64,000 nucleotides of DNA, taken from positions 496,001 to 560,000 of the forward strand of contig JAROAZ010000001.1 of NCBI GenBank assembly GCA_029432775.1, read 5' to 3'. Shown here piece after piece: positions 2,240 to 39,234 of this stretch; positions within the stretch are counted from its first letter, which is position 1, and the number at the start of each line of letters is the position of its first letter. Source of the stretch: Pontiellaceae bacterium B12227 (GTDB taxonomy: Bacteria; Verrucomicrobiota; Kiritimatiellia; Kiritimatiellales; Pontiellaceae). Position numbers and translations under genes: made by a program. Under the pieces are notes generated by a model that did no database searches, had not been told where the DNA came from, and saw nothing but the letters and a program-made list of their open reading frames with translations.

Positions 2240-2474
2240 CTCCCTGTCTCCTTTTAGTGTCTTTGGTGCGTCACGATACGTTTTAAATATATCTTTTTAT
2301 TCCGCTTTTAAGAATACATTCTCTCGCATCTATAAAACTATAAACGCCTCTCATTGCAGTATTCGTGAATTTTAATAAATTTTTTCTGATGATTACGCAA
2401 ATACGCATACCACCCACAAATTGTATCGTTTTATTTCCATTTTCTACCATTTTATGCCAAGGTTTCAGTTGACC

Positions 2475-14496: not shown

Positions 14497-17400
14497 TTAA
14501 TCTCCGACTCCTATATCCAGTTTCATAAACTGATGTGCTTGTGAGTCGATGGATACGCGGTTGGTGACCGACTCAAATTCAGCGTCGAGGACAACGGAAC
14601 CCGCCTCTTCGGTGGCATTGCTCCATGCACCGCTCACCAGATTCGTGGTGGCAAGTACCTCGTAGGTCAGGTTGCGTGCGTAGGCATCGAGCCGGCGGTT
14701 GTAGATATAGTTGAACCAGTTGGTGCCGTCTTCTTCGTTGCTTCCAAGGATTGGAAGTTTTTCTGCGGCATCATGGACGAGCGGATCGCCGCCGAGGGCA
14801 TATTCAAGCAGGTTGTTCATACCGTCTCCCCCGCCGGGTTCGGCATCGTCGCCGTAGCCGTCTTTGGCATGGATGGCGGGATAGTAGCTTCCGGCCCACT
14901 GGTCGTAAGGTGCGATGTTGTCGCCGCCCACATCGACGACATAAGACAGCATGAATCCGCCCATACCGGATTGGGTGAGTCCGGCCGTGTCGTCGGTTGA
15001 AACGGTCATTGCCCAGTTTAAGGCGTTGTATTTCGTCAGAGCATCCAGGCCGGTGAAGGTATAGTCGATCAGGTTGTTATACAGTGAGTGATCGAAGGCC
15101 ACAATGTTGGTGCTGTTGGCACTGGCGTCGGTAAAGACCGTAGTTTCTCCGCTATTGTTTCCATAATATGGGCCGAATTTGCTTAGTTCCAACGAGGCAA
15201 GCGAGTTGCCTGGATCCACATAGGAAACCGTCAGCTGGATGGCTTCATCGAGGTTGATTCGACCGGTTTTCGGATCGGTCTGGCGAGCCGTGCTGTCCAC
15301 GCCAAGGAAGGATTTGGTCAGGGCGAGAGCGTCCCCGTTCAGCGCCACGGCGGTAATGGTGAAGACCAGGTTGGGATCTTCCGTGTCGGCAAACGAATAG
15401 GTGCCGGTGGAGCCGGTCACCGACATGCTGTCCCAGCGGGCGTCGAATTCACCGGAAAGTCCGCCGATCTGGAAGGTGGTGGCGGGTATGCCTGGGCCGG
15501 TGGCCAGCAGGTAGCAGGTGGAGGTGCGTGGGTCGGTTCCATCGGAGACGACAACCTTAAATTCATACGTGCCCAGTTCGGTGACGGATACCGTGGTGTT
15601 GGAACTCGCTGCGGTTCCGTTGACGCTAAAGGAAGCATCGCCCGGGCCGTAGGTTTTTTCCCAGGTGTAGATGAGCGGATCGCCGTCTGCATCGGTGGCT
15701 TCCACGGAAAGGTCGTACCCGTTTGCGGTTGCCGGTGCAGTGATGACCGGTGCGTGGTTCGCCGGCGCTTCTTCGGGCGGATCGATCAGGGTCATGCCGG
15801 GGCGGTCGTTGATCTCGACCTTAACCACGGTCAGCTGGCCTCCGATTTTTGAGAGACCGAGAATGTTGCCGGTCTTTTTCAGGTATTCGTAGTCGATCGT
15901 TTTGATGTAGGGCCAGGCGGCGGGCAGGTTGATCTGTTCGGGCGTTTCCGACGGGTGCCAAAAGCGGTAGAACCGGTCGAGGCTATCGGGAATGTAGCTC
16001 ATGACGCCGGCCGGGTCGTGCACGAGGCGGAAGTCGGTGGTCGCGGCCACGATTTCGCCGTAGTTGGTCCAGGCGTTTCCATCCCAGCCCAATACGATGG
16101 ATTGGTTGTCGGCATTGTTGTCGTTGGGATCATAGCTCTTCTGCCGTACAACGGTGTAGGGGTTGTTCTGGTAGTCGACAGCCATGTTGCCCAGGACGGA
16201 CAGATATCTGTCTGTCGGGGCGTTGTAGATGATATCGGCCTGGTTGGTGGTGAGATCGATGGTGGAAGGAAGGGTGATGGAGGAACCGTCGGCCTTGGCA
16301 TAATCGGTCCCGTTGGTGGACTGCGCGTAGACGATGGTGTCCACAAAATGCTGCCCGGAACCCATCCCCCATGGATTGAGCGTCGGGTTGGAGAGCAGCG
16401 GCGTAACGAGGTGCATGTGGTTGTTGCGGTCGAATACGCCATGCGGGCAGGTTTTGCTGTATTTGTTGTTCAGGTTGCCTGCATCATATTCGCGCCCGTC
16501 GTCGTAGAAGGTGCGCGGCTCACTGTCGGGGTCGGCGGGGTCAAGTCCGCCAATAATCGACCACAGCCCGGTGTCGGCATCGTAGCGGCTGTATGTGGCG
16601 CAGCGGGTGGAGTTATTTGTCCATTGGTGGGTGCGAGAGGTCATGTGCAGCTTGCCATTCAGGTCGTTGAAGAAAAACGGGTAGGTGAAGCCGTAACCGG
16701 GCGGGCACTCGCCAGTCTGGTCGCCTTTGAATGAGAAACTGGAGACATCGAGCGGATTGTCCGAGCGCCAATACATGATGTTCTTGTTGTGGTAGCGCAA
16801 CGGCAGGTGGTCTGTTGACCAGCGCGGATAGTTGTGCATATCGCCAACGAGGTGGAGATAGCCGTCTTCGTCGACGCCGAGTGAACAGGCGTGGTGGCCA
16901 TCCTCAAACTTGACGGTGTGGTAGCCCTCATTGCCGCCGTTGCCATCGTAGAACTCGTCGGGCTGGTAGAGGGTGTTATCGATAAAGGCTTCCTCCTTGA
17001 AGACGTCGTTGGTCAGATGGGCGATTTTCATGCGGTGTTCGGTGTCAACAAACAGGACAAAGGTGTCATCGCCACGGGACACGACCGGGCTGTGGTAGCT
17101 GCCCGGCAGGAAGTTGAGATCCTCCTGAGCCGGTGTGCTCCAGAGGTTGGAAAAGGTGTAGGTTTCCTGGCTCAGATCGTAGGGGGCGGCATTGCTGTAG
17201 AGCTGCGCGGCCTCGGCGTAGAGGGGGTATTGGACTGACTGGGTAAGAGTATAATCTAAAATCAATGCGCTTAGGAGTCCTTTGGTGGCTGGATATCCCC
17301 CATTCACTTTGAATTGGATGGACCATGTCGACACATTGCTTTCAGTGAGGGGCGCCAAGCCGTCCAGCTCCTTGCCGGGGCCATACTCCACCAGATCATC

Positions 17401-17826
17401 GGCAAGCTCCGCGATCACCACCGAGCTGGTTCCATCCGTGACATCGAAACCCTCTTCCATACCCAGACTTCCCACGAGGAAGGAAGCCGAGAGGCTTGCG
17501 AGGTTTCCACCGGAAACCGATAGCGTTAGCCCTAGCGACTCCGAACCATCGATCCGTGTATCGCTTGACCCGCCCTTAACGGAAAGGCCGACATTCTGCA
17601 CCGTGACATTCTGACCGGAGTTTGCTGTGGCCGTGACGGTAAAGGTGATTCCGTTCGCATCCGTGTATGAAATGGGCTGAACGTTGTTCACTCCGCTTTC
17701 ACCAGCAAGATCTAGCCACCCCGCCGTTCGGACTGCGGAGTCACCACCGAAGTGAATGGTTTCGGCATTACCCGTTATGCCGAGAAGTCCAGCGATGAAC
17801 AGCAGTGTTTTAAGTTGTTTGCGCAT
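14497..17826 (-). CDS. Secreted BNR_4-type beta-propeller protein, probable polysaccharide (ulvan-type) lyase, copy 1
   Basis: 1109 aa with a signal peptide (to about 21). An N-terminal sandwich module (22-195) is followed by a BNR_4-type propeller (about 200-690) with H311, H312, GDMHN (H331) and YWRSDNP. The 20-residue spacing H311 to H331 matches, as I recall, the catalytic histidine pair of PL25 ulvan lyase; PL24 is similar. A PKD-like domain follows (ATDADGDPLIYTW), then a second sandwich module resembling the N-terminal one (TGRINLDEAIQ... against DTRIDGSESLG...), and a LEYALGGDP C-terminal domain. Paralogues lie at 26543-30112 and 30443-33898. The start region and upstream DNA are duplicated at 33898-34250. 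Transcription is expected from the promoter at 17953. Confidence 0.85.
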   Translation of the reverse strand: MRKQLKTLLFIAGLLGITGNAETIHFGGDSAVRTAGWLDLAGESGVNNVQPISYTDANGITFTVTATANSGQNVTVQNVGLSVKGGSSDTRIDGSESLGLTLSVSGGNLASLSASFLVGSLGMEEGFDVTDGTSSVVIAELADDLVEYGPGKELDGLAPLTESNVSTWSIQFKVNGGYPATKGLLSALILDYTLTQSVQYPLYAEAAQLYSNAAPYDLSQETYTFSNLWSTPAQEDLNFLPGSYHSPVVSRGDDTFVLFVDTEHRMKIAHLTNDVFKEEAFIDNTLYQPDEFYDGNGGNEGYHTVKFEDGHHACSLGVDEDGYLHLVGDMHNYPRWSTDHLPLRYHNKNIMYWRSDNPLDVSSFSFKGDQTGECPPGYGFTYPFFFNDLNGKLHMTSRTHQWTNNSTRCATYSRYDADTGLWSIIGGLDPADPDSEPRTFYDDGREYDAGNLNNKYSKTCPHGVFDRNNHMHLVTPLLSNPTLNPWGMGSGQHFVDTIVYAQSTNGTDYAKADGSSITLPSTIDLTTNQADIIYNAPTDRYLSVLGNMAVDYQNNPYTVVRQKSYDPNDNNADNQSIVLGWDGNAWTNYGEIVAATTDFRLVHDPAGVMSYIPDSLDRFYRFWHPSETPEQINLPAAWPYIKTIDYEYLKKTGNILGLSKIGGQLTVVKVEINDRPGMTLIDPPEEAPANHAPVITAPATANGYDLSVEATDADGDPLIYTWEKTYGPGDASFSVNGTAASSNTTVSVTELGTYEFKVVVSDGTDPRTSTCYLLATGPGIPATTFQIGGLSGEFDARWDSMSVTGSTGTYSFADTEDPNLVFTITAVALNGDALALTKSFLGVDSTARQTDPKTGRINLDEAIQLTVSYVDPGNSLASLELSKFGPYYGNNSGETTVFTDASANSTNIVAFDHSLYNNLIDYTFTGLDALTKYNALNWAMTVSTDDTAGLTQSGMGGFMLSYVVDVGGDNIAPYDQWAGSYYPAIHAKDGYGDDAEPGGGDGMNNLLEYALGGDPLVHDAAEKLPILGSNEEDGTNWFNYIYNRRLDAYARNLTYEVLATTNLVSGAWSNATEEAGSVVLDAEFESVTNRVSIDSQAHQFMKLDIGVGD

Positions 17827-26542: not shown

Positions 26543-29500
26543 TCATTCGTTGATTTCCAGTTTAAGTCTCATGAATGCTTGATCTTTCCCGTCGGAGGAA
26601 ATGCGGTTGGTGACGGATTCGTAGTCGGTGTCGATGATTGCGGAACCGGCTTTCTCTGCGTTGTTTGTCCAGGCATTGGAAGTCAGGTTGGTGGCAGTCT
26701 GCACTTCGTAGGTCAGATTGCGCACGTCGGCATCACGGCGGCGCTTGTAGATGTAGTTGAACCAATTGGTGCCGCCGGCCTCGCTTATGGAGTAGATGGG
26801 CATGATGTCCGCAACATCGTTTGTGTTCGGGTTTCCGCCGAGGGCGTATTCGCCAAGGTTGTTGATTCCATCGCCGTCGGGATCGGCGGAGTATGCCGCA
26901 GCCTGGCCGTAAAGGTTGTTGTATTCCGCCCAGAACGTGTAGGGCTTAGATGCGATCGTTACATCATCGATGAACAGCATGTCCCAGGAGCCGGTGTTGT
27001 CGCTCGTCCGGAAACGGATCTCGGTTACCGTTCCGTAGGCGCTTAGATCCACCGAAGCACGCTGTAAGTTGTCGGGTGAATTGTCGGCATCGACTCCGTT
27101 GCCGCTGTCGTTCATCGACCAGACCGTATGCCAGGAGCCATCATAGATTTCAGCATAACCGAATTCCGTGTCGCTATTCAGCGTATCGACATCCCACGTG
27201 AACGTCAGCGTTCCATTGGCAATGCCGTTGGCCAGCGTGCGGGTGATGCTTTGGTTGTTTTTTCCCTCGCGCAGACGAACGGCATAGTTACCCGAGAGTT
27301 CAACGATATCCGGCGGGGTATCTCCCCCGGCTGTAACGGTCCAGCCGCCGTCCCATCCCGTACCCCCGACCCAGTCGTTGCTCTGAAAATCGTCGGATGA
27401 TATGTCGCCGGCAAAGGCGGTCACGGTGCAGAAAGAGAGCGCGATGCCTGCGTTGTTGATGATAGAAACTTGCAACTCATAGGTTCCAAGCGCGCTGAAT
27501 GAAGCGACGGTGTTCGAGCTTGCCGCCGTACCGTTGACGCTGAAGGAGACATCACCGGGCCCACTGACTTTGCTCCAGGTGTAGGTGGCGGTTCCTCCGG
27601 CGGCGTTGGTGGCAGTAACTGAGAGGGTGGATGTTCCCTGCAGGGTGACCGTATCGGGTGATGCGCCTGCTTCGGTGATGACGACTGGAGAGTCAGGCGA
27701 GACATACAGGTAGGCCGTGCAGGTTGAGATGCGCATTGAATGGCCGTCTGATATCGCGACCTTTATTTCATAAGAGCCCTCTGCACTGACGGAGAGGGTT
27801 GTGTTGGAGCTCGCTTCGGTACCGTTCGCGGAAAACAAAACGGCACCCGGGCCATAAGATTTGCTCCACGTATAGGTCAGTGGATCTCCATCGGCATCGC
27901 TTGCGGTCACCGCAAGGGTGGTTCCGTTGAACGCGGCCGCGGTCGTGATTTCCGGCGGGTGGTTGGTTGGGGTTTCTGCTGTCGGCACGATCAGATCCAG
28001 ACCGGGGCGACCGATGATTACCTTGGAGATATAGATGTCCGTGGTTGTGGCGGCAACTCCGAGAATGTTGCCGGTCTGTTTGGCGTATTCCGCATCCATT
28101 TTTTTGAATGACCACGGCAGGGTAATTGTAACCGGCGTGCTGGCGGGGTGCCAGAAACGATGCATTTCGCTGGAGTCGTCATTGAACCAGTTCAGTACGC
28201 CGGCGGGGTCGGCCTGCAGGATAAAATCTGCGGCTCCCCGGGTGGAGGGGTTGGGGTGCTTGATCCAGCTGTTCTGCGTTTGATCCCATTCCATGATGTA
28301 GGTGATGTCCGGATTGCTGTTGGTGAATATTTGCTGCATTTCAACGAACGGGATTTCACGGTAGTCGGTTGCCAGCGAAACGCCGGTGCTGATGTATTCA
28401 GGCGTGCTGTTGGTCACGTTGACCGCATAGACAAAGTCGGCCTGGTTGGCACTGGGGACCACGCGGGCCGGCATGACAATAGGGGTCGAACCGTCGGCCT
28501 TTACGAAGGAGGTGCCGCCATCGTCGGAGCGTGCATAGAGGATGTGTGTTGTGTGATGGAAGTTATATATAGCGTCCGGGATGACGGGATAGACGATGTC
28601 ATACCCCACCGTCGGCGCAGAACAGTGCATGTTGTTGTTGCGGTCGAACTGGCCGGCCAGACTGGTTTTGCTGTAGTCGCCCGGAATGCGCGAGGCGTCT
28701 TCATAGAAAAAGCGCGGGTGGTTCGGCTCGCCGGGCACCGTTCCCCCGACCACCGACCAGTTGCCGGTTTGCGCATCGTAGCGCGACATGGCGATACAGC
28801 GCTTGGAGCTGGCCTGCATGGCGCGTGATCCCATGAAAAGTTCGCCGTTCCAGTCGTTGAAAAAAGTGTAGTAGGTGAATCCAGATCCCTGCGGGCATTT
28901 CAAGGCCTGGTCGCCATAGTAGCTGAAGCTGGAAATGTCGTAGGGATTGTCGGAGCGCCAATACATAATCTGATTGTCATAGTAGCGAAGCGGCAGGTGC
29001 TCCATAGATTGCTTGGGATAGTTGTGCATGTCTCCGACGATATGCAGGTAGCCCTGCTTGTCCATGCCTATGGAAAAGTTGTGATGGTTGTCATTGTGAA
29101 GTGCGCTGTAATATCGCGCCACGCCGCTGTTGCTGTAGAACTCGGATGGCTGATAGACCATGTTGTCGATGTAGCCCGACTCATGGGTTCCATCCGCGTG
29201 GATCTGCGTTACGACGGGGCGGAAGTCGTCATCGACATAGACGATAAACGTGTTGGTTCCGCGCGAGACGATCGGGGTTTTTCCCATGTAGTCTAGCATG
29301 TTGGTGGAGGACGATCGGGGGACGCTCCACAGTTCCTCGAACTGATAGGTTTCCTGCGTCAGATCGTAGGAGGTATCGTTCATCAGCAGATTGTTTACGC
29401 GTGGATAGAGCGGGTATTTAGGAGGCGGAATCACGGTGATCTCATAACCCAAATTCACATCGAGGTCGTTAATTCTAACATAAAAGTCACTAACCGACGT

Positions 29501-30112
29501 CATGTCGGCAGTCGACGTATAGACATAGTTCGTGGTGAAAGCACCCCAGGTCAGAGTCATGTCAAACGTATTAGCAGCGGTGTGAGCAACGGTCAGATTG
29601 AACGCGGCCGTGTCACCAGCAAATTTCAACTTATCCGCATTCGTGAGCCCCGCCGAAGTGAGCTCACCCGACTTGTCTAAGTTCCCATCCAACTTAAAGT
29701 TACCAGCGGAGGTAGCGGCATCATCGCCACCAAATTCGACCTTCGGATTGAAATCCTTCAAGTCAAACTGAAGCGCCAGTGCCTGAACCCCATCACCAAA
29801 CCCGAGTTTTAAACTGTCATTAAGCGCCCAACCGGTGCCACCATACCCAATTTTAGCACCATCCGCGGTCGGATCAACCGCCAGGGTCTGAATCGTAAAA
29901 TCGATATTAAACGTCTCACCAATTGCCAGCGAAACCGCCGAGCTCGTTTCCGAATCTGTGAGAGCATAAGTACTCGCAATATCCCGGCTGCCATTAGCAT
30001 TAGTTATCGATCCAGAAACACTTGAACCTCCATCGAGGAGGATTTCCCCGTTGGCCACGACCGCGACTGACATAACGACTAGCAACGTCAACATAGTTAT
30101 TATTATTTTCAT
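26543..30112 (-). CDS. Secreted BNR_4-type beta-propeller protein, probable polysaccharide lyase, copy 2
   Basis: 1189 aa with a signal peptide. The N-terminal module (about 24-228) starts ILLDGGSSVSGSITNANG and is nearly identical to that of the 586-aa protein at 35093-36853, while the rest of that protein is different. The propeller (about 235-690) carries DNHHN, GDMHNYP and YWRSDNPYDISSF, the same histidine pattern as the other two BNR proteins. Two PKD-like domains follow, then a jelly-roll module (about 920-1060) and a LEYALGGNP C-terminal domain with YKRR and FMRLKLEINE. AAAGGA lies upstream of the ATG. It lies 30 nt downstream of the pseudogene at 30143-30443 and should be in the operon starting at 33898. 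Its fusion of module and propeller points to domain shuffling. Confidence 0.85.
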   Translation of the reverse strand: MKIIITMLTLLVVMSVAVVANGEILLDGGSSVSGSITNANGSRDIASTYALTDSETSSAVSLAIGETFNIDFTIQTLAVDPTADGAKIGYGGTGWALNDSLKLGFGDGVQALALQFDLKDFNPKVEFGGDDAATSAGNFKLDGNLDKSGELTSAGLTNADKLKFAGDTAAFNLTVAHTAANTFDMTLTWGAFTTNYVYTSTADMTSVSDFYVRINDLDVNLGYEITVIPPPKYPLYPRVNNLLMNDTSYDLTQETYQFEELWSVPRSSSTNMLDYMGKTPIVSRGTNTFIVYVDDDFRPVVTQIHADGTHESGYIDNMVYQPSEFYSNSGVARYYSALHNDNHHNFSIGMDKQGYLHIVGDMHNYPKQSMEHLPLRYYDNQIMYWRSDNPYDISSFSYYGDQALKCPQGSGFTYYTFFNDWNGELFMGSRAMQASSKRCIAMSRYDAQTGNWSVVGGTVPGEPNHPRFFYEDASRIPGDYSKTSLAGQFDRNNNMHCSAPTVGYDIVYPVIPDAIYNFHHTTHILYARSDDGGTSFVKADGSTPIVMPARVVPSANQADFVYAVNVTNSTPEYISTGVSLATDYREIPFVEMQQIFTNSNPDITYIMEWDQTQNSWIKHPNPSTRGAADFILQADPAGVLNWFNDDSSEMHRFWHPASTPVTITLPWSFKKMDAEYAKQTGNILGVAATTTDIYISKVIIGRPGLDLIVPTAETPTNHPPEITTAAAFNGTTLAVTASDADGDPLTYTWSKSYGPGAVLFSANGTEASSNTTLSVSAEGSYEIKVAISDGHSMRISTCTAYLYVSPDSPVVITEAGASPDTVTLQGTSTLSVTATNAAGGTATYTWSKVSGPGDVSFSVNGTAASSNTVASFSALGTYELQVSIINNAGIALSFCTVTAFAGDISSDDFQSNDWVGGTGWDGGWTVTAGGDTPPDIVELSGNYAVRLREGKNNQSITRTLANGIANGTLTFTWDVDTLNSDTEFGYAEIYDGSWHTVWSMNDSGNGVDADNSPDNLQRASVDLSAYGTVTEIRFRTSDNTGSWDMLFIDDVTIASKPYTFWAEYNNLYGQAAAYSADPDGDGINNLGEYALGGNPNTNDVADIMPIYSISEAGGTNWFNYIYKRRRDADVRNLTYEVQTATNLTSNAWTNNAEKAGSAIIDTDYESVTNRISSDGKDQAFMRLKLEINE
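29437..30050. repeat. Near-identical N-terminal module DNA, copy 1
   Basis: About 600 bp encoding the N-terminal module of the 26543-30112 protein align with 36186-36790 with long identical runs and few indels (for example the segment encoding NDLDVNLGYEIT). Similarity falls off on both sides, as expected after recombination or gene conversion of one module. Confidence 0.75.
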
Positions 30113-30142
30113 CGGCTCAGTCCTTTTCTGTTTAAAAATTGG

Positions 30143-30443
30143 TTATTCGTCGGTACCGATTTCAAGCCGCAAGAACTGCTGCATTTCAATCTCGGTAGAG
30201 ATGCGATCGGTGACCGATTCGGAGTCGGTATCCATGATTTCAGTTCCAGCTTCCTCGGTATTGTTTGTCCAGAAGCTGGAACCCAGATTGATGGTGGACG
30301 TTGTTCACGCCGCTTTCTCCCGCAAGATCAAACCACCCCGCCGTTCGAACCGCGATATCGCCATCCAATTGAATGGTTGCGGCATGGGCAGCGGCACAAA
30401 GGAGTCCCGCGATGAACAGAAGAGCTTTACGTCTGTTTTTCAT
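30143..30443 (-). pseudogene. Internally deleted BNR-lyase-family gene
   Basis: The ATG at 30443 starts a signal peptide and about 50 residues almost identical to the start of the 30443-33898 protein (TIQLDGDIAVRTAGW, LAGESGVNNV). The frame then shifts and an early stop follows. In another minus-strand frame the downstream DNA encodes the very end of a LEYALGGDP-type protein (FWTNNTEEAGTEI, then ESVTDRIST and QQFLRLEIGTDE) ending in the TAA at 30143-30145. This is what remains of a gene of over 3 kb after a large internal deletion. Its ATG overlaps the stop of the upstream gene (TAATG). Confidence 0.85.
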
Positions 30444-33400
30444 TATCGAATCTCCGCTTCCACCTTGAAGAAGGCGTTGGACGGTGTGAGATCGAATTCA
30501 ACCTCGTCGTCCGGCGGGGTCTGGGCGACGGTCCAGTCGCGCGCCACGCTCCAACCGGTCAGATCGGGACTTTGCTGGATACGGTAGCGCACGCCAGCCT
30601 GGCTGGGCCACGAGATGCGGACTTTTCCAAGGTCTGGAAGAACGGTTCCCCCGTTGATGCCGAACATGGACGCGGGATCTTCCGGGTCGGTGCCGAGACG
30701 AATTTCCGCTAGGTTGCTCTGGCCATCGCCATCCTTGTCGCCGTTAGGTTCGTAGATGATCACGTTGGCGAAAGTGCTTTGTGCATCGGGGTTGATTTCC
30801 CCCGAGTTGTCGGCGTTGACAAAATCCAGATAGTTTTTCTGCTCGGTGTTGAGCGCGAGCAGCTGGCCGATCGCAATCGAATACCGATTGGTTCCGCCAG
30901 CGTATTCCCCGTCGCGGTCCATGATGTAGAGGCCGTTGTCGCTGCCGTGCAACTTGATCAGGTCATAGCGGCCGCCGCTAAAGTCCCAGCTGGGGGTATC
31001 GGTCATGGCAATCGCATGAAGCTCTCCTTCATTGGGACAACTGAAGTCGAATTCGATCACGGTGTCCGGCGTCATCAGATAGTCGATGGGAAAGGCTTTC
31101 CACAGGTCGCCGATGAAGCGAACCCCCGCCCCACCCTCGACTACCTCGACGGTTCCGGTGCGGTCGAAAAAGTCATTGTCGTTCACGAAGCTTTCGAAGG
31201 CCTGCGAGGAGAAGTCGATCGCAACGTATCCATTGGCCAGAACGGGAGGAAGGCCATTCACATCAACGGTGCAGCTGGAGCTCGCGCTACCCGCGCTATT
31301 CGAGACGATGACCTGCAGTTCATAGGTACCGGTTGCATCGAAGGAGGCTTCGGTGGTTGAGCTGGCGGTGGTGCCATTGATGCTGAAGGAAACGCTTCCC
31401 GGCCCGCTCGACTTAAACCAGGTGTAGGTTGCATTTCCGCCTGCCGCCGCGTTGGTGGCACTGACCGTAAGAGTGGTTGTTTCCCCCAGCGTGAGCGTGT
31501 CTGGTGATGCATGGGAATCGGTCGTGATATGCGGAACATTTGGATCGCCGACCACATGGCGGAACGTGCAAGTGGAGATGCGCGTTTCGATGCCGTCGGA
31601 CACAGCCACTTTTAACTCGTAACTTCCAGACTGCGTAAACGTGGCTACCGTGTTGGAGCTGGCCTCGGTTCCGTTCTGGGAAAACGAAACGTCGGCAGGA
31701 CCATAGGCCATGGACCAGGTGTAGGTGAGCGGGTCGCCATCGGCATCGGTTGCGGCGACCGAAAGGGCCGTTCCGTTGAACGCGGCAGCTCCTGTTATTT
31801 CCGGCGGGTGATTGGTTACAGGATCTGTCGGAGGTGTGATCAGGCCGAGTCCCGGACGCGTGATCTCCATACGTTTTACAACCAGCTCGCCGGTCGCGGC
31901 ATCCTCGCAGAGCACCTGAAGATTGCCGGTCATTTTCACATACTCGCGGTCGTACGCTTTCACCCGATTCCAATCGGCCGTAACCACCGTGTTGGAAACA
32001 GTATCCCAGAAACGGGTCACCTTGCTTTCATTAATGACCGTCATGACTCCAGCCGGGTCGGTGAAAAAATATTGATAGTCGGAAACCACGTCTTCGTAAC
32101 CGGTCCATCCGTCGGCGGCGCTCCAGCCGAAAAGCTGCGTCGGCCCCTGCGAGAGAATGGTCAGTCCATCCGTATGCTTGGGCTTACAAAGCACATACGG
32201 ATTGTTGGAGATGTCGTGTGCAACCTGTACGGAGGCGTTGAGATATTCCTGGTTGTCCGGATCGGACAAATAATCGGTTGTATAGATGACCTCCGCCTGG
32301 TTGGCGCCGGCTTCTGCGCGGGCGGGCATGCTGACGACGGAACCATCCGTTTTTTTCATGGTAACGCCGCCGTCGGTGGATTGAAGATACAACAGGTCGG
32401 TCAGGACGGCCCAAACTGTCTGCACGACATCGGCATCATAATTCAGAATTCCCGTTGCCATATGCATTCTGTTCTGGCGGTCGAAACTGAGATCGCCGTA
32501 CATTTTCACATAAGTGCCGCCGTTTTCGGCATTGTCTTCCCAGAAGGTGACATCGTAGCCGTCGGGTTCGAAGGCTTTGCCACCGACGATGCTCCACGTA
32601 CCATTTTCGGCATCATAGCGACTGGTGGTCTGTGCACGCCGCCCCATTTTGAGCGGGTCGCCTTGAAAGGTGCGCGAGCTGAAAAAGAGTTCGCCTTCCA
32701 GATCCTTATGAAACTGCAGATAGGTGAACCCATATCCCTGAGGGCAGGTGGTCGGATCGTCGCCTCTGAAGCTGAAACTGGAAATATCACCTGGGTTGTC
32801 GGAGCGCCAGTAGAGGCAGTTCGAATTGAAATAACGCATGGGCAAATGATCCATATTACCCGCTACATCAGGAAAGTTATGCATGTCGCCGGCAATATGA
32901 ATGTAGCCGTCTTTATCAATGCTCATGCATAAATCGTGATGACCGTCGGCTTCGATCATGCGGTAAAAATCGGGGCCGACGATATCATTGTCTGGATCGG
33001 CATCTGAATTGGCATAAAAATCCTCGGTCTGATATTCCACATTATCAAGATAGGCTTCTTCAACCGTATCACCCGTTATTTTTGCAATTTTAACCCGTCG
33101 TTCGGCGTCTGCAAACACCACAAACGTGCTGTCGTTCCAGGAAACAAGCGGGGTGCCGTGGCTATCGTTAAAGACGGGATATGGGTAGGTAGCGGTACGG
33201 AAGATTTCGGAATAGGAATAACTTTCACTAGTCAGGTCATAAGCCACCTTATTACTGTAGAGTTGGGCGGCCTCGGCGTAGAGGGGGTATTGGACAGGCG
33301 GGTTGGTTTCCGCTGCAACGGTATAGTCCAGGAGCAGTGCATTCAGGATTCCTTTTGTGTTTGGATATCCCACGTTCACGCTGTAGTTGATCAACCAGGT

Positions 33401-33898
33401 CGACACATTGTTTTCAGTAAGAGGAATCAAGCCATCCAGCTCCTTGCCGGCACCATACTCCACCAGCGAATCGGCAAGCTCCGCGATCACCACGGTGCTG
33501 ATTCCGTCAGAAACGTCGAATCCCTCTCCCGTGCCCAGGCTTCCCACCAGGAAGGAAGCCGACAGACTTTCAAGATTTCCACCGGAAATCGAAAGGGTCA
33601 GATCGAGCGACTCCGAACCATCGATCCGCGTATCGCTTGACCCTCCTGTAACGGAAAGGCCGACATTCTGCACCGTAACATGCTGCCCGGCGTTTGCCGT
33701 GGCCGTGACGGTAAAGGTGATCCCGTTCGTATCGGTATAGGAGATCGGCTGCACGTTATTCACACCGCTTTCGCCAGCAAGATCAAGCCACCCCGCCGTT
33801 CGAACTGCGATATCACCGCCCAGCTGAATGGTTTCGGCATGGACCGTTATACATAGGAGTCCAGCGATGAATAGCAGGGCTGTAAGTTGTTTGCGCAT
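30443..33898 (-). CDS. Secreted BNR_4-type beta-propeller protein, probable polysaccharide lyase, copy 3
   Basis: 1151 aa with a signal peptide. The N-terminal sandwich module is close to that of the 14497-17826 protein, and a BNR_4-type propeller follows with DGHHD, GDMHNFP and YWRSDNPGDISSF. Two PKD-like domains come next, then the roughly 165-aa module shared with the beta-helix lyase at 5427-9533 (AIDFS...VIIYEP), a calcium-type repeat (DKDGDGQSNLAEIRLGTDP) and the second kind of C-terminal domain, ending FFKVEAEIR. It therefore pairs the front of one paralogue group with the tail of another. Transcription is expected from the promoter at 34023; the stop overlaps the start of the pseudogene downstream. 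An ulvan-lyase-like activity is suggested by the histidine spacing only. Confidence 0.85.
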   Translation of the reverse strand: MRKQLTALLFIAGLLCITVHAETIQLGGDIAVRTAGWLDLAGESGVNNVQPISYTDTNGITFTVTATANAGQHVTVQNVGLSVTGGSSDTRIDGSESLDLTLSISGGNLESLSASFLVGSLGTGEGFDVSDGISTVVIAELADSLVEYGAGKELDGLIPLTENNVSTWLINYSVNVGYPNTKGILNALLLDYTVAAETNPPVQYPLYAEAAQLYSNKVAYDLTSESYSYSEIFRTATYPYPVFNDSHGTPLVSWNDSTFVVFADAERRVKIAKITGDTVEEAYLDNVEYQTEDFYANSDADPDNDIVGPDFYRMIEADGHHDLCMSIDKDGYIHIAGDMHNFPDVAGNMDHLPMRYFNSNCLYWRSDNPGDISSFSFRGDDPTTCPQGYGFTYLQFHKDLEGELFFSSRTFQGDPLKMGRRAQTTSRYDAENGTWSIVGGKAFEPDGYDVTFWEDNAENGGTYVKMYGDLSFDRQNRMHMATGILNYDADVVQTVWAVLTDLLYLQSTDGGVTMKKTDGSVVSMPARAEAGANQAEVIYTTDYLSDPDNQEYLNASVQVAHDISNNPYVLCKPKHTDGLTILSQGPTQLFGWSAADGWTGYEDVVSDYQYFFTDPAGVMTVINESKVTRFWDTVSNTVVTADWNRVKAYDREYVKMTGNLQVLCEDAATGELVVKRMEITRPGLGLITPPTDPVTNHPPEITGAAAFNGTALSVAATDADGDPLTYTWSMAYGPADVSFSQNGTEASSNTVATFTQSGSYELKVAVSDGIETRISTCTFRHVVGDPNVPHITTDSHASPDTLTLGETTTLTVSATNAAAGGNATYTWFKSSGPGSVSFSINGTTASSTTEASFDATGTYELQVIVSNSAGSASSSCTVDVNGLPPVLANGYVAIDFSSQAFESFVNDNDFFDRTGTVEVVEGGAGVRFIGDLWKAFPIDYLMTPDTVIEFDFSCPNEGELHAIAMTDTPSWDFSGGRYDLIKLHGSDNGLYIMDRDGEYAGGTNRYSIAIGQLLALNTEQKNYLDFVNADNSGEINPDAQSTFANVIIYEPNGDKDGDGQSNLAEIRLGTDPEDPASMFGINGGTVLPDLGKVRISWPSQAGVRYRIQQSPDLTGWSVARDWTVAQTPPDDEVEFDLTPSNAFFKVEAEIR

Positions 33899-34022
33899 AG
33901 GGGAAATTTCCTTTTAAAAGCATTTAACCCAGGCCACATTATTTTGTTTATGTGGAAATTGAGTTCAGCGTTTTTTGCCTAAGTTCGAGATTTCAGCATG
34001 AAACCTATTGGTAGCATCGCGT

Positions 34023-34052
34023 GGAGACGCAAAGTTGTTTGTTTTTTGGACA
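34023..34052 (-). promoter_or_regulatory. ECF-type promoter TGTCC-N18-CGTCTCC of the 30443-33898 operon
   Basis: Minus strand: TGTCC at 34052-34048, 18-nt spacer, CGTCTCC at 34029-34023, 125 nt before the ATG. It lies downstream of the terminator at 34192, so it gives the BNR operon its own start. The spacer is similar to that at 17953 because the whole region is duplicated. Confidence 0.75.
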
Positions 34053-34191
34053 CGGAATCACTAGGTAATAGCCCGAAAGATGCGGGTGCTACCCTGTAGC
34101 GCAGGCCTCCAGTCGACCCTGATAAAAACTGTATTCAATATAAGCTTTTTTCGTTTTGGGCGTCCCGCAGCGCCTAGCAGGATCCGGGTAC

Positions 34192-34222
34192 AAAAAAGCC
34201 CCGCCAAAAACGACAGGGCTTC
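34192..34222 (-). terminator. Rho-independent terminator after the PEP-CTERM gene
   Basis: Read on the minus strand, AAGCCC and GGGCTT form a stem followed by a run of T residues, starting about 20 nt after the stop codon of the 34243-35010 gene. Confidence 0.7.
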
Positions 34223-34242
34223 GCTCAATCGTGAGGATTGAT

Positions 34243-35010
34243 CTAGATCGTGAAGGTACGGCGAATAGCAACCATACCAACACCAACCATCGCAACCAGT
34301 CCCAACGTGGCTGGTTCCGGAATAACAGAAACAGACATATTGCTGACCGTGAAGTTATTGTCATGACCAGCAACAGCGTTGATGCGGATACCGATTCCAC
34401 TGATGAAATCCATCCCGTCTGCCGTTGCATTGGCAAGGCCGGTGGTTCCAAACGTCATGTCGTCCCATGTGAGGGATACATCAAACAGGTTTGCGGCCGT
34501 CTTGGTCACGGAATACGAGACATCCACAACAGAACCGCTAGTATCGAACGCGCTGGTAGGTATAAGAGCATCCGACAATACAGACTGATCGTATGATCCG
34601 ATGGCTGTCGGGCTCATGTTGTCACCCACGCCAATACCTGCGACGTTGGCTGCAGTTAAAGGACCCCAGTCCATTCTGACACTCGCGCCGCCCTGACCGC
34701 TTTCATCCCACATCGCGAAGCGAAAATCCTGAGGGTCACTCAGTGCATCTGCGTTCATCGTGGTGGTAAAGGACATGGTTACGGTATCGCCGATCCCGAA
34801 AGCTTCAGCGGTAAAATCACCCGATGATGCCAACTGATAGGCCCATGCGCCTTTCGAGGTCGCTGCGGTGAACCCGGTGGCGGACTCGCCGGTCAGGCTG
34901 ATTGAGCTAGCGTTGGCTGTGCCTGTCTGCCACGTATTGCCCAATGTAATCACTCCTGCCTGGGCACCGAGTGCTATCGCAGAAGCTGCTACTAGTAATA
35001 ATTTTTTCAT
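34243..35010 (-). CDS. PEP-CTERM sorting-domain protein
   Basis: 255 aa with a signal peptide (MKKLLLVAASAIALGAQAG). The middle is a single beta-rich module without known catalytic residues; its layout (FxxGDTVTMSF..., SMWDES-like stretch, SNMSVSVI) resembles the second module of the 586-aa protein encoded upstream. The C-terminus is a textbook PEP-CTERM tag: IPEPATLGLVAMVGVGMVAI followed by RR. Such proteins are processed by an exosortase, not encoded here, and delivered to the cell surface or matrix. It is followed by a terminator. The gene's 3' end is the intact partner of the remnant at 18135-18246. Function of the exported domain unknown. Confidence 0.9.
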   Translation of the reverse strand: MKKLLLVAASAIALGAQAGVITLGNTWQTGTANASSISLTGESATGFTAATSKGAWAYQLASSGDFTAEAFGIGDTVTMSFTTTMNADALSDPQDFRFAMWDESGQGGASVRMDWGPLTAANVAGIGVGDNMSPTAIGSYDQSVLSDALIPTSAFDTSGSVVDVSYSVTKTAANLFDVSLTWDDMTFGTTGLANATADGMDFISGIGIRINAVAGHDNNFTVSNMSVSVIPEPATLGLVAMVGVGMVAIRRTFTI

Positions 35011-35050
35011 CTATTTCTCCTTTTGTCCTTCTGTTGTTCTTCCGAGCCGC

Positions 35051-35069
35051 ACCCCGCCAAATGCGGGGT
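35051..35069. other. Perfect 7-bp inverted repeat between two co-directional genes
   Basis: ACCCCGC-CAAAT-GCGGGGT lies in the 82-bp gap between 35093-36853 and 34243-35010. No T-run follows on the transcribed strand, so it is more likely an mRNA stem that stabilises or separates the two coding parts than a terminator. Confidence 0.5.
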
Positions 35070-35092
35070 ACTGCGCGGGAAAATCCAATCTG

Positions 35093-36853
35093 TTAATCGG
35101 CCAATTCTACCTTCAGTTTCATGAACTGCTTGCCTTCAGTGGCCGTTGAAACGGTGTTGGTCACGGTTTCGAATCCATTGGCCACTGCGGAAACGGTTTC
35201 GGACGTATTCGTGTTATCCAAACCACCAGTCACCAAGTCTGTTCCGTCGAGCACCGTGTAGGTCAGCTTAGGATCAGCCGGATTCTGGCGGTTATAGACA
35301 TGGTGCAGGAAGCCACCATTCACTTCAGATTTCGGCAGGTAAACATCCGCATCATCCACTAGCGGATCGCCACCCAGAGCATATTCGAGCAGGTTGTTCA
35401 TGCCATCGCCTAATCCGCCATTCTCAGCATCATAGCCGAGGCCATCATTCACACCTGCCGTAAGGCCGTTGTCGGTGGCCCAACTATCATATCCTTCGAA
35501 GTTCGGGTTGGAGATTACGAGCTTCATGTTGCTGATGATCAGGGCATTGTCGTCGGTCTGCCTGAAGCGGAAACCCAGTTCGTTCAGCGAGTCCATATTC
35601 GCCGAGATGGTCAAATCGTTCGTCACCGACAGGTCATCATAGCTCATAATGGCCACCACGTCGGTCAGCGAAGTACGCGTCATGGAGATCACGAAATCCG
35701 CTGACTGACCGATTCCATTAATTACAGTGCTCGGGGTTCCAACCGAGTCAACCGCACCGGCTACGGAACCGATATCCGCCGGGCCCGACACACTGTCACT
35801 CCCAAGCCGCATATACACTGTGTCCACCGCACCCCAATCGATCTGGAAAGAGACCGCGTTATCGCTTTCGATACCCGAATCCCACATAGATCCCTGGAGG
35901 CCCGCACTTTCGGCATTGAAGGCCATGGTCGAACCCGCACCCGCCGTAAACGACCATGTTGCGGTTTCCCCCACCTGGAACGGAGCATCAAAGGAATTCG
36001 CATCCATCTGATACATAAAGCGCTTATCGTTGGTGGCGAGGCTGTTTGTCATTTCAACCGAGAACCCGTCGGCGGAGGATGCCAGCACGGCCATGTTGCT
36101 CGAACCATCCCGGAACTCCCAGTCGGCGGCAAATTCGACATTGCCAACCGGAGGATTTGTAGATGTTGGCTGCCCGGGAATGATGGTGATCTCATAACCC
36201 AAATTCACATCGAGATCGTTAATTCTCACATAAAAGTCACTAACCGACGCCATGTCAACAGTGGACGTATAGGCATAGTTAGCTTCCCAACCACCCCAGT
36301 CCAATGTCATGTCAAACGTATTAGCAGCGGTGTGATCCACGGTCAGGTTGAACGTGGCCGTATCGCCGACAAACTTCAACTTTTCCGCATTCGTAAGCCC
36401 CGCCGATGTGATCTCAGCCGATCCGCTTTCAAACTTAAAGTCACCAGCAGAGGTAGCAGCAGAATCGCCACCAAGTTGGAGCTTCGGGTTAAAATCTTTC
36501 AATTGAAACTGAAGCGCCAGTGCCTGAGCCCCATCGCCAAAACCGAGTTTCAGACCGTCATTAAGCGCCCAACCGGTGCCACCATATCCAATTTTAGTGC
36601 CCAGCGGCGTGTTGGTATCAACTGACAGGGTCTGAATCGTAAAACCCATATTAAACGTCTCACCAATGGCCAACGAAACCGCCGACCCCCCATCCGTGAG
36701 AGCATAACTGTCCGAAATATCCCTGCCACCATTAGCATTGGTTATCGATCCGGAAACACTTGAGCCTCCATCAAGCTGGATCGCTCCCTGCGCCGCCGAA
36801 GCCGCCAAAGCGGCTAAACTCGCCATCATTATTCCTATCTTTTTATTCATCAT
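35093..36853 (-). CDS. Secreted modular protein with LEYALGGDP-type C-terminal domain, paralogue-cassette partner of 293-2239
   Basis: 586 aa with a signal peptide (to about 23). The first module (about 24-228) is nearly identical to that of the BNR protein at 26543-30112. The second (about 240-455) is a beta-sandwich resembling the PEP-CTERM protein encoded downstream. The last 110 residues hold LLEYALGGDP, VYNRQ and the terminal FMKLKVELAD, the same end as the 648-aa protein at 293-2239. No catalytic residues are recognised, so a surface-binding role is inferred. It is divergent from the second kinase and carries the ECF-type promoter at 36917, which makes it a likely direct target of the neighbouring sigma factor. 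Confidence 0.85.
   Translation of the reverse strand: MMNKKIGIMMASLAALAASAAQGAIQLDGGSSVSGSITNANGGRDISDSYALTDGGSAVSLAIGETFNMGFTIQTLSVDTNTPLGTKIGYGGTGWALNDGLKLGFGDGAQALALQFQLKDFNPKLQLGGDSAATSAGDFKFESGSAEITSAGLTNAEKLKFVGDTATFNLTVDHTAANTFDMTLDWGGWEANYAYTSTVDMASVSDFYVRINDLDVNLGYEITIIPGQPTSTNPPVGNVEFAADWEFRDGSSNMAVLASSADGFSVEMTNSLATNDKRFMYQMDANSFDAPFQVGETATWSFTAGAGSTMAFNAESAGLQGSMWDSGIESDNAVSFQIDWGAVDTVYMRLGSDSVSGPADIGSVAGAVDSVGTPSTVINGIGQSADFVISMTRTSLTDVVAIMSYDDLSVTNDLTISANMDSLNELGFRFRQTDDNALIISNMKLVISNPNFEGYDSWATDNGLTAGVNDGLGYDAENGGLGDGMNNLLEYALGGDPLVDDADVYLPKSEVNGGFLHHVYNRQNPADPKLTYTVLDGTDLVTGGLDNTNTSETVSAVANGFETVTNTVSTATEGKQFMKLKVELAD
36186..36790. repeat. Near-identical N-terminal module DNA, copy 2
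   Basis: Counterpart of 29437-30050. The copies differ mainly at scattered positions and in a short indel near the SGELTSAG/SAEITSAG stretch. Confidence 0.75.
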
Positions 36854-36946: not shown

Positions 36947-37158
36947 CAAAATAATATGTTTTATTTTCGTACAATCATTCAATACCTCGGTTTTTACAGA
37001 AACTGCCCCATTTTTCTTAAAAAATGGCTAAATCATTCTCCCCGTATGCCCTCCACTATAGTAGATTTTTCTCGGCAAAAGAAATATGCCTGCGATTTCG
37101 CTCGTAACCGCCAATACCAATAAAACGAAATGTAGTCGTGAAAACAAGCGGAGAACAT

Positions 37159-39234
37159 ATGGACGACACCCCCGAAAAAGGCATGGAAAAGGATTTTCAA
37201 CAACGTCAGGACACCCTCTACAACTTTTATAAGCCTGCTCAGCCTCTCCTTTCTGAAGAAGAAATCGAATCGTTGACCCCGATCTATAATTCGTTATTGA
37301 CGACCGACTCGCGCTATGGCGAACAGAACCTGCTGGCTGAAGGGGGCGAAAAGCGCATTTTCCGGACCTATGACCGCCGGCTAGATCGCTTTGTTGCCAT
37401 GGCCTTCGCCGTTCATGGCGAGAGCATCGAAAAGCAGGAGCAGTTTCTGCGAGAAGCCCGCCTTACTGCCAACCTGATCCATCCGAACATTGTACCGATC
37501 CATAACATGGGTATCGATACCGAGGGAAAGCCCTTTTTCTCTATGGAACTCGTTCCCGGCGACAGCCTGGGCGACATTCTGAAAAAAATAGAGCGCAACG
37601 AGACCGACTACCGGGAAAAATATACGCTCGATGTTCTGCTGGGGCTATACCTGAAGGTTTGCGACGCCATCGCTTATGCCCATTCCCGAAAAGTGCTCCA
37701 TCTTGATATCAAACCCGACAATATACGGGTTGGGCAGTTTGGCGAAGTGCTGGTGTGCGACTGGGGTTTGGCAAGAATCATCCATGAAAAGGACGAAGAG
37801 ACCCAACCCGGAGAGTTAGACGGCGACATACTTAACGATATGACTCTTTCCGGAACCATGAAAGGCACGCCGGGATTCATGGCCCCCGAACAAACCATGC
37901 AAGGCGGCGAAAAGGCCCCTCAAACCGATATTTATGCACTGGGAGCCCTGCTCTATAAAATTCTGACGAACGAAATCCCCGTTGAAGGATCCAGTGCCAA
38001 CGAAGTCGTTGAAAACACCGGGGTCGGAAAAATCATTCCGCCCCGTAAACGATGCCCGGACCGGCACGTACCAAAGGGCCTGGCCGCTGTGACCATGAAA
38101 GCATTAGCCCTCGCGCCGGCCGACCGCTACAGAAGTGTTCAAACGCTCCAGAAGGAAATCCGGCGCTATCTGACGGGTTTTCCCACGCATGCCGAACGGG
38201 CGGGCCCGATGGATCGTCTAAGCCTTTTCACGCTGCGGCATCGCGACCTTACCGTTTGGCTCCTGTTCTTCTTCATGGTATTGAGCACCGTTGTCAGCGT
38301 CAACCTGCTGGTTATTCGGGAAAAGAAAATGGAGGCGGAGGAAGCGCGGCAAACGGCAGAACGGAATTTTGCGTTATACCAGAAAAAGCACTCCGAAGCG
38401 GAGACCCTCGATGCCGAACTCGAAAAAGCATCCATTCTCACCTCGAAATTCCTTGGCGTACTCTATCCCGAAGAGCGGCTCCGTTTACTGGAAAAAATTG
38501 ATCTGACGCGAATGGGGCCGGATAGAGTCCGGGAAATCTTATTAAGCAAGAGCCACCTCAGGTTCATGCTGCAGGAATTCAATGCAGCCGCAACCTCCTA
38601 TGGAAACATGGGAGACGACCCCGAAATCCAGGCCTTGCTTGAAATGGCGAAATACTACGGTTCAATCAAACCCAGGGATCGGAACCGTCTAACAGACGGG
38701 CAGCTGGCCGACTTGCTTGCGAATAAGGAGACCGTGAAACAGTTTATGGCCTATCCGATCTACCACTATCATACGGAAAGAAAGCAGCAAGCCGCTCCGG
38801 AAAGCTACCTGCCTCTGGCCAGCATCATGCTGGCCAGGGTAAACGGAATCCATGACGAAATTATCGACCCGCTAAAGCTGACCAAAACGGAAAACGGCTA
38901 CCATCTGGATTTCTCCGAAACCCCGTATACGACCTATTCCGTCCCGATTGCCGGCTCCTACCGCAAAAACATTCTGCAACCGCTGCACTTGCATTCCCTG
39001 GACATCAGCCATTCCCGAATGGCGTTGGTGAAAGAACTGGCCAATCTAGAGATCAACGAACTGCGCATGATCGGCGTTATGCTCGAACCCAGGAATGGCC
39101 TGCCCGGCATGCTTAGGCGAATGGGGGTGCAACGGGTTGTTATCGAACAAGGGCAATACCCGCAAACAACCATCGCCGCGATCCGGAAAAGTGGAATAGA
39201 GGTCGTGGAAGACGTTTCAAAGATCGAACATTGA
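37159..39234 (+). CDS. Membrane-bound Ser/Thr protein kinase with atypical lysine placement (copy 2)
   Basis: 691 aa from the ATG at 37159, preceded by GGAGA at 5 nt; an in-frame GTG lies at 37138. Same architecture as the kinase at 2475: EGGEKRI with K65, VAMA (79-82) replacing VAxK, FLREARLTANLIHPN, HLDIKPDN, DWG and GFMAPEQ, with a conserved activation loop LNDMTLSGTMKGTP. A membrane helix (about 372-395, LLFFFMVLSTVVSV) precedes a helical stretch and an extracytoplasmic part ending in the same leucine-rich-like strands (LHSLDISHSRMAL). It converges on the sigma gene at 39302. Retention of the substituted lysine pattern in two diverged copies argues for an active enzyme rather than a decayed one. 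Confidence 0.9.
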   Translation: MDDTPEKGMEKDFQQRQDTLYNFYKPAQPLLSEEEIESLTPIYNSLLTTDSRYGEQNLLAEGGEKRIFRTYDRRLDRFVAMAFAVHGESIEKQEQFLREARLTANLIHPNIVPIHNMGIDTEGKPFFSMELVPGDSLGDILKKIERNETDYREKYTLDVLLGLYLKVCDAIAYAHSRKVLHLDIKPDNIRVGQFGEVLVCDWGLARIIHEKDEETQPGELDGDILNDMTLSGTMKGTPGFMAPEQTMQGGEKAPQTDIYALGALLYKILTNEIPVEGSSANEVVENTGVGKIIPPRKRCPDRHVPKGLAAVTMKALALAPADRYRSVQTLQKEIRRYLTGFPTHAERAGPMDRLSLFTLRHRDLTVWLLFFFMVLSTVVSVNLLVIREKKMEAEEARQTAERNFALYQKKHSEAETLDAELEKASILTSKFLGVLYPEERLRLLEKIDLTRMGPDRVREILLSKSHLRFMLQEFNAAATSYGNMGDDPEIQALLEMAKYYGSIKPRDRNRLTDGQLADLLANKETVKQFMAYPIYHYHTERKQQAAPESYLPLASIMLARVNGIHDEIIDPLKLTKTENGYHLDFSETPYTTYSVPIAGSYRKNILQPLHLHSLDISHSRMALVKELANLEINELRMIGVMLEPRNGLPGMLRRMGVQRVVIEQGQYPQTTIAAIRKSGIEVVEDVSKIEH

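What the first reader, a model, noticed from the sequence alone, without database searches (positions are those of the whole stretch)
29437..36790. Recent exchange of one N-terminal module between two different proteins
The 26543-30112 lyase and the 35093-36853 protein share a nearly identical first 200 residues and about 600 bp of DNA, yet nothing else between that module and their tails. Its close BNR relatives at 14497 and 30443 carry a different N-terminal module. Gene conversion or fusion by homologous recombination is the simplest explanation.
Basis: seen in the sequence. Interest (0 to 1): 0.5.

Follow-up and report, generated by a model that had tools for sequence, protein, structure and literature searches.

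The report
Swapped sugar-binding fronts on lyases
In a marine bacterium that probably degrades seaweed sugars, neighbouring secreted enzymes and a non-enzyme neighbour have exchanged their front-end module, probably a sugar-binding part, while keeping very different bodies; the exchange is about as old as the split between two related species, and a dead gene fragment lies between two of the genes.

Summary
The 26543-30112 lyase (A) and the 35093-36853 protein (B) share one ~205-residue module (N1) just behind different signal peptides: 80% amino acids, 84% DNA, not "nearly identical". The rest is unrelated until the tails, which are 32% identical. C (14497) and D (30443) share another module (N2).

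Outside the window there is a third N1 copy in this genome (lyase E) and three more in Pontiella sulfatireligans F21. The exchange is not recent: N1 dS between A and B is 0.38, like orthologous propellers of the two species (0.30-0.47), while paralogous propellers are near saturation. At DNA level N1 groups by species rather than by gene, which suggests later gene conversion; protein-level and mosaicism tests are weaker.

The strip between D and A (30146-30443) is a gene fossil: a signal peptide with the start of N2, joined to a T1 tail end. N1 is most likely a carbohydrate-binding-like module exchanged within a clustered family of ulvan-lyase-like genes. New variant of a known kind.

The parts
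29426..30043 (-). N1 module in lyase A (residues 24-229 of 26543-30112)
   Evidence: 83.9% DNA / 79.6% aa to B, 90.3% aa to E; alignment edges
36176..36781 (-). N1 module in protein B (residues 25-226 of 35093-36853)
26543..30112 (-). Lyase A: signal peptide, N1, BNR_4 propeller (residues 233-715), two PKD domains, T1 tail
35093..36853 (-). Protein B: signal peptide, N1, B-body (233-453), T1 tail; no Pfam or NCBIfam match at E<=0.1
30443..33898 (-). Lyase D: signal peptide, N2, BNR_4 propeller, two PKD domains, T2 tail
14497..17826 (-). Lyase C: signal peptide, N2, BNR_4 propeller, PKD-like domain, further C-terminal module, T1 tail
30295..30443 (-). Remnant gene X, 5' part: start codon overlapping D's stop, signal peptide and the first ~28 residues of N2 (about 49 residues in all)
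   Evidence: 81% DNA to D over 144 bp, E 4.5e-34; family D4
30146..30294 (-). Remnant gene X, 3' part: last ~49 residues of a T1 tail with its stop codon, in another frame than the N2 head
   Evidence: 74.8% DNA to A's tail, 73.6% to Cp's tail; found independently by the T1 search, E 3.7e-10, 1 TGA
33304..33838 (-). N2 slot of D, bounded by a short near-repeat: GCCGAAACCA (33829-33838) and GCGGAAACCA (33304-33313)
   Evidence: N2 comparisons
34243..35010 (-). PEP-CTERM protein between B and D; part of its body is distantly similar to N1
   Evidence: TIGR02595 16.6 bits, cut-off 16; PF07589 17.9 bits, below the 20.7 cut-off, but 22.2; hhalign to N1 probability 85% over 56 columns

Best explanation
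A family of secreted beta-propeller enzymes (ulvan-lyase / rhamnosyl-glucuronate type fold), clustered as paralogues in Pontiella-like bacteria, has an exchangeable N-terminal slot between signal peptide and propeller. The slot holds N1, N2, a CBM96-like module (N3) or nothing. N1 also sits in the neighbouring protein B, which has no recognised enzyme domain, and was most likely acquired by the lyases from such propeller-less proteins around the time the window's species and P. sulfatireligans split; later copies were probably partly homogenised by gene conversion. Genes of the family also lose pieces by deletion, which leaves fossils such as gene X between D and A. N1 most likely works as a carbohydrate-binding-like module that places enzyme and partner on the same polysaccharide. 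Shown: the sharing, the variation of the slot, the tree conflict, the fossil. Inferred: donor direction, gene conversion as mechanism, sugar binding, enzyme specificity.
For: N1 at E<=2e-94 in 6 places in 2 of 345 class genomes. N1 dS 0.25-0.45 among A, B, E, Ep, Bp. Slot contents on 11 propellers: N1 in A, E, Ep; N2 in C, D, Dp; N3 in F, G1, G3; none in Cp, G24, needing 5 changes on the propeller tree where 3 is the least for four states. D and F propellers are 86.9% identical but carry N2 and N3; C and Cp are 90.0% identical but carry N2 and none. N2 dS between C and D 0.60, propeller dS 2.24. Gene X fossil; N2 remnant upstream of E, and a short T1-like end upstream of Ep. N3 matches CBM96 over the cut-off in 2 of 3 sequences given. 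N1's weak model finds L-type lectin domains first. N1 lies in three propeller-less proteins: B, Bp and the diverged Gp.
Against: Direction is not proven: Gp's N1 is only 35-40% identical, and the B-type protein of G003 carries a CBM96-like front, not N1. Conversion tests are mixed: protein-tree p 0.076 for B+Bp; PHI below 0.05 at 1 of 3 settings; informative sites 16 for the species split, 9 for orthology, 7 for a B,Ep split that fits neither; dS(A,B) is below dS(B,Bp) in only 67% of bootstraps. The T2-tail test did not reject orthology. N1 and propeller models are weak (pLDDT 57.7 and 56.6). N1 has no Pfam match at E<=0.1. N1 evolves fast (omega up to 0.96), which could distort trees.
Confidence: 0.67

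Rival explanations
1. One old spread, then simple vertical descent: N1 came to sit in both B and the lyases before the two species split and has since only diverged, with no later gene conversion.
For: N1 dS among all five close copies is about that of the species split; species-split and orthology site patterns are both present (16 and 9); the protein AU test does not reject B+Bp (0.076).
Against: DNA trees reject B+Bp (0.0097) and E+Ep (0.0009); dS(Ep,Bp) is below dS(B,Bp) in 99.55% of 2000 codon bootstraps and below dS(E,Ep) in 90%; B and Ep share two indels that fit neither history.
Confidence: 0.23
2. Protein B is a lyase that lost its propeller: the module stayed in place and the enzyme part was deleted, so the direction is lyase to B.
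For: Internal deletions do occur here: gene X is an N2 head joined to a T1 tail, and Cp and G24 lack an N-terminal module. A and B both end in T1.
Against: B's body shows no similarity to the propeller, and is conserved in Bp and in the B-type protein of G003 (E 1.8e-33). The T1 tails of A and B are 31.7% identical while N1 is 79.6%, so they did not travel together recently.
Confidence: 0.08
3. Strong constraint rather than exchange: N1 is as old in both genes as the propellers and merely conserved.
For: None found beyond the similarity itself.
Against: N1 synonymous divergence is low (A-B 0.38) where paralogous propellers are at or near saturation, and N1 is among the least constrained modules: omega 0.32-0.96 in nine of ten pairs (0.17 for A-E) against 0.09-0.13 for orthologous propellers.
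Confidence: 0.02

Closest known systems
PL24 / PL25 / PL42 lyases and the BT3686-type alpha-L-rhamnosidases (GH145; that number is recalled)
   Same: The propeller model of A finds 5mvh, 5mum, 5muk/5mul and 4irt first, then 7esk-7esn (rhamnose-glucuronate lyase), PL24 LOR107 and PL25; a profile of four propellers hits the same four glycosidase-type chains at E 9.4e-6 to 5.5e-5; BNR_4 over its cut-off.
   Different: 10-17% identity in the structural alignments, low-confidence model; the profile match covers about 120 of 494 positions and the same list holds three designed TIM barrels at E 1.3e-4 to 1.7e-3; NF052497 (BT3686 rhamnosidase) scores 17-24 bits against a cut-off of 700. Activity and catalytic residues untested; these are longer, multi-domain proteins.
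CBM96 (alginate-binding module; PMC9971899, abstract and outline seen)
   Same: Occupies the same slot in relatives F and G1 (over the cut-off) and, just below it, the front of the B-type protein of G003.
   Different: N1 (from A) and N2 (from C) give no CBM96 match.
PEP-CTERM exported proteins
   Same: The N1 profile finds the body of an own-genome PEP-CTERM protein (E 3.1e-6) and matches part of the neighbour 34243-35010. By eye N1 ends in '(V/I)IP' where those proteins read 'VIPEPATL'.
   Different: A and B carry no PEP-CTERM anchor; the similarity is partial.
Accessory-module shuffling and concerted evolution in multi-domain CAZyme families (recalled as a general phenomenon)
   Same: Clustered paralogues, exchangeable accessory modules, gene remnants.
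   Different: Here the module is shared with a neighbour that has no recognised enzyme domain, and a deleted gene is still readable between the copies.

Membership tests
BNR_4 / PL24-PL25-rhamnosidase-like propeller enzymes | BNR_4 (PF15892) match over curated cut-off | tested here: met
   A 47.9, C 64.8, D 66.8 bits; cut-off 27.3
BNR_4 / PL24-PL25-rhamnosidase-like propeller enzymes | Seven-bladed propeller fold | tested here: inconclusive
   Foldseek TMq 0.54-0.59 to these families, but model pLDDT 56.6
BNR_4 / PL24-PL25-rhamnosidase-like propeller enzymes | Catalytic residues and beta-elimination activity | not tested
   residues not mapped; activity needs the bench
Carbohydrate-binding module (N1) | Match to a known CBM family | tested here: not met
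   no Pfam hit over N1 at E<=0.1; best CBM_35, E 0.19, 12.5 of 28 bits
Carbohydrate-binding module (N1) | Beta-sandwich / jelly-roll fold | tested here: inconclusive
   top hits L-type lectin domains, best E 1.3e-4, TMq 0.38, rmsd 13.7; pLDDT 57.7
Carbohydrate-binding module (N1) | Binds a glycan | not testable with these tools
   needs protein
CBM96 (N3 of F, G1, B3) | PF24517 over cut-off of 26 bits | tested here: met
   met in 2 of 3 given: F 31.1, G1 26.8; B3 24.6 is below; G3 was not given
PEP-CTERM protein (A and B) | C-terminal PEP anchor | tested here: not met
   no PEP-CTERM hit for A or B at E<=0.1
Gene conversion | Copies in one genome closer than orthologues | tested here: inconclusive
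   DNA tree yes, protein tree partly, PHI at 1 of 3 settings

The most novel reading that the evidence does not exclude
The front slot is a matched address tag: a lyase and its kinase-linked neighbour without an enzyme domain need the same module, and recombination keeps them matched, so the pair re-targets together. In the window and F21, B and one or more lyases carry N1; in G003 both the B-type protein and the nearby lyase carry a CBM96-like front. Against it: G003's two copies are no closer to each other (36.0%) than B3 is to G1 (36.8%); C, D, Cp and Dp beside B and Bp carry N2 or nothing; and the lyase next to F21's Gp has no N1.
Probability: 0.1. Interest if true: 0.6.

Novelty: new variant of a known kind. 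Interest (0 to 1): 0.38.

Why it matters
How bacteria re-target polysaccharide-degrading enzymes is usually inferred from finished architectures. Here one gene family shows the slot filled four different ways across close relatives, a readable deleted gene between two members, and dS values that date the exchanges against a species split. N1 and N2 match no Pfam family and are candidate sugar-binding modules next to lyases that may act on ulvan-like polymers, which is directly testable.

Tried and rejected
I first read the N2 remnant upstream of A as A's own former front, replaced by N1. One search changed that: in A's upstream strip the N2 head is joined to a T1 tail end with a stop, so it is the fossil of a separate gene. 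The N1 and propeller models were too weak to map fast-changing sites. Plasmid records held no match to B. PDB sequence search gave one weak PKD-type hit for C and two chance-level hits for B. No inverted repeat of 40 bp or more was found in the window; mobile-element genes were not searched for. The T2-tail test for homogenisation did not reject orthology (p-AU 0.12 and 0.089; site counts 19, 12, 8). Paper searches on Pontiella lyases, domain or module shuffling, gene conversion and concerted evolution in such enzymes and on Kiritimatiellota with PEP-CTERM (no paper) listed nothing on this family by title or start of abstract; they cover open-licence PMC papers only. Ulvan-lyase papers were seen in the listing only; CBM96; Pontiella papers (passages).

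Coverage: N1 was searched in 345 class genomes, the propeller and the B-body in 29 family genomes each. Of the 12 propeller matches, the weakest (H, G028:C1:738832) was left out of the propeller tree and tables. Pairwise tables print mainly pairs above 60% identity.
Full report
SETTING. The window is G000:C111:496001-560000 of a 6.29 Mb, 206-contig genome. Its N1 modules recur in Pontiella sulfatireligans F21 (the same record as G028 contig C1). Names used here: A = 26543-30112, B = 35093-36853, C = 14497-17826, D = 30443-33898 in the window. E (C111:418828-422370) and F (open frame C111:412605-418337) lie elsewhere on the same contig. Bp, Cp, Dp, Ep are the F21 counterparts. Gp is a further F21 protein with N1. 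G1, G3, G24 are propeller genes of other relatives; B3 is a B-type protein beside G3.

THE OBSERVATION. A and B align over one DNA stretch of about 605-620 bp. It covers A residues 24-229 and B residues 25-226, 79.6% identical in amino acids and 83.9% in DNA. The edges are sharp: the signal peptides before it are 43% identical, and beyond it sliding identity drops to background until the last ~130 residues, where the T1 tails are 31.7% identical. C and D carry N2 instead, 81.8% identical to each other. So the pattern is real; 'nearly identical' overstates it.

MORE COPIES. A third N1 sits in E, a lyase with a similar plan. F21 has N1 in Ep, Bp and, diverged (35-40% identity), in Gp. Of 345 class genomes 3 had a match at E<=0.001; the six strong matches (E<=2e-94) lie in two genomes, and the three weak ones (E 2.0e-8 to 3.1e-6) include a PEP-CTERM protein of this genome. 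That the arrangement recurs in a cultured type strain makes an assembly artefact unlikely. B's own middle domain is distantly related to N1 too: B3's matches N1 of Bp, A and E at E 8.6e-8, 5.6e-6 and 3.8e-5.

HOW OLD. By Nei-Gojobori counts, N1 dS is A-B 0.38, A-E 0.32, E-B 0.45, Ep-Bp 0.25, E-Ep 0.33, B-Bp 0.42. Orthologous propellers of the two species give C-Cp 0.40, D-Dp 0.30, E-Ep 0.47, and the B-body gives 0.32. Propeller pairs A-C, A-D, A-E and C-D give 1.38, 2.39, 2.05 and 2.24, at or near saturation. So the sharing is far younger than the propeller paralogues and about as old as the species split. It is not recent in any absolute sense.

MODULE TREES AGAINST PROPELLER TREES. On the tree of 11 propellers the slot contents (N1: A, E, Ep; N2: C, D, Dp; N3: F, G1, G3; none: Cp, G24) need 5 changes, where 3 is the least for 4 states. 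The N2 carriers cannot be one clade (p-AU 2.7e-48). The N1 carriers are rejected at 0.018, with A a long branch and a long-branch warning on the tree. Close pairs make the point without a tree: D and F propellers are 86.9% identical but carry N2 and N3; C and Cp are 90.0% identical but carry N2 and nothing. N2 is also much younger (C-D dS 0.60) than the propellers behind it (2.24).

GENE CONVERSION. On N1 DNA (five rows) the unrooted tree is (Ep,Bp),(B,(A,E)), both inner branches starred. It rejects the orthologue pairs B+Bp (0.0097) and E+Ep (0.0009). The protein tree (six rows) rejects E+Ep (0.036) but not B+Bp (0.076); Ep+Bp is not in the best protein tree and is not rejected (0.17). No correction for the number of tests was made. 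Of 59 two-state informative sites, 16 fit A,E,B against Ep,Bp; 12 fit A,E against the rest; 9 fit orthology; 7 fit B,Ep against the rest; six other splits have 1 to 3 each. dS(Ep,Bp) is below dS(B,Bp) in 99.55% of 2000 codon bootstraps and below dS(E,Ep) in 90%; dS(A,B) is below dS(B,Bp) in 67%. A PHI-type test on 74 sites gave p 0.007, 0.09 and 0.17 at three settings. I take conversion as likely, not proven. The first joining was not homologous in any way I can see, since A and B share no sequence flanking N1.

FOSSILS. Between D and A the 330 bp strip is not plain spacer. From a start codon overlapping D's stop (30443) it reads a signal peptide and about 28 residues of N2 (81% DNA to D over 144 bp). 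At 30295/30294 it jumps to the last ~49 residues of a T1 tail with its stop, in another frame (74.8% DNA to A's tail, 73.6% to Cp's). A genome-wide T1 search found the same remnant independently. Upstream of E, residues 1-100 of the signal peptide plus N2 stretch remain, with two changes of frame. Upstream of Ep there is only a short piece like the end of gene X (40 bp, 82.5%, E 1.6e-5), reading like a T1 end; the direct protein search of that strip did not report T1. So a lyase gene with N2 and T1 probably once stood before the N1 lyases and was deleted to different extents.

SLOT EDGES. In D, N2 is bounded by GCCGAAACCA at the signal-peptide end and GCGGAAACCA in the linker. Cp lacks N2, and its junction reads GCCGCAACCAAT before a similar linker. 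Deletion between short repeats would explain Cp; this is inference from a few bases.

WHAT THE PARTS DO. A, C and D pass the BNR_4 cut-off. A weak propeller model finds BT3686-type glycosidases, rhamnose-glucuronate lyase, PL24 and PL25 first, and a propeller profile finds the first of these by sequence, over about a quarter of its length and in a list that also holds three designed proteins. I therefore think these enzymes cut rhamnose-glucuronate type linkages, as in ulvan. F21 grows on rhamnose (passage of PMC10880615); growth on ulvan is not stated in the passages I saw. N1 has no Pfam family; its weak model resembles L-type lectin domains. The slot in relatives F and G1 holds a CBM96-like module over the cut-off, a family founded on an alginate-binding domain (abstract of PMC9971899). 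Hence N1 is most likely a sugar-binding module. N1 changes fast in protein: omega is 0.65 for E-Ep and 0.96 for Ep-Bp, against 0.09-0.13 for orthologous propellers; B-Bp is 0.53, close to 0.44 for the B-body, and A-E is 0.17. Relaxed constraint and diversifying selection are not separated.

DIRECTION. Three propeller-less proteins carry N1 (B, Bp, Gp), the last diverged, while lyases carry it only in A, E and Ep. That favours transfer from such proteins to the lyases. B3, the B-type protein of G003, carries a CBM96-like front instead, so B's own front slot changes too.

VERDICT. A real exchange of front modules, in several events, within a clustered enzyme family and its neighbour: known in kind, unusually well preserved.

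Noticed in passing
C-termini of A, B, C (T1) and D (T2); genome-wide: The T1 tail (~137 aa) has 63 matches at E<=0.001 in this genome and the T2 tail (~98 aa) has 34 at E<=0.01. In the proteins read here both run to the very C-terminus, so they may be export or anchoring signals.
   Followed up: partly
2421-4529 and 37138-39234: Two genes sharing a 93 bp stretch that read like serine/threonine kinases (motif recalled; no family search run). Genes with the same motif stand beside Bp and near Gp in F21.
   Followed up: partly
34243-35010: PEP-CTERM protein; the genome has 57 PF07589 matches at E<=10, 30 of them marked over the cut-off (three of these only with neighbours counted); of 14 control genomes 13 ring but 0 pass the cut-off.
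   Followed up: partly
L026:1-18001 (C111:405000-423000) and L006: A second lyase locus with F, an N2 remnant, E and a gene resembling 5427-9533, partly repeating the window's order.
   Followed up: partly
D tail (window 30443 to about 31534) and E tail: D and E share their last ~363 residues at 89-91% DNA identity though their propellers are 41% identical in protein, so the tail has been exchanged too.
   Followed up: yes
L033:11599-11680: By eye, Ep's signal peptide resembles Dp's, while E's resembles A's (73% aa; E-Ep 36%), so signal peptides may also be swapped.
   Followed up: no
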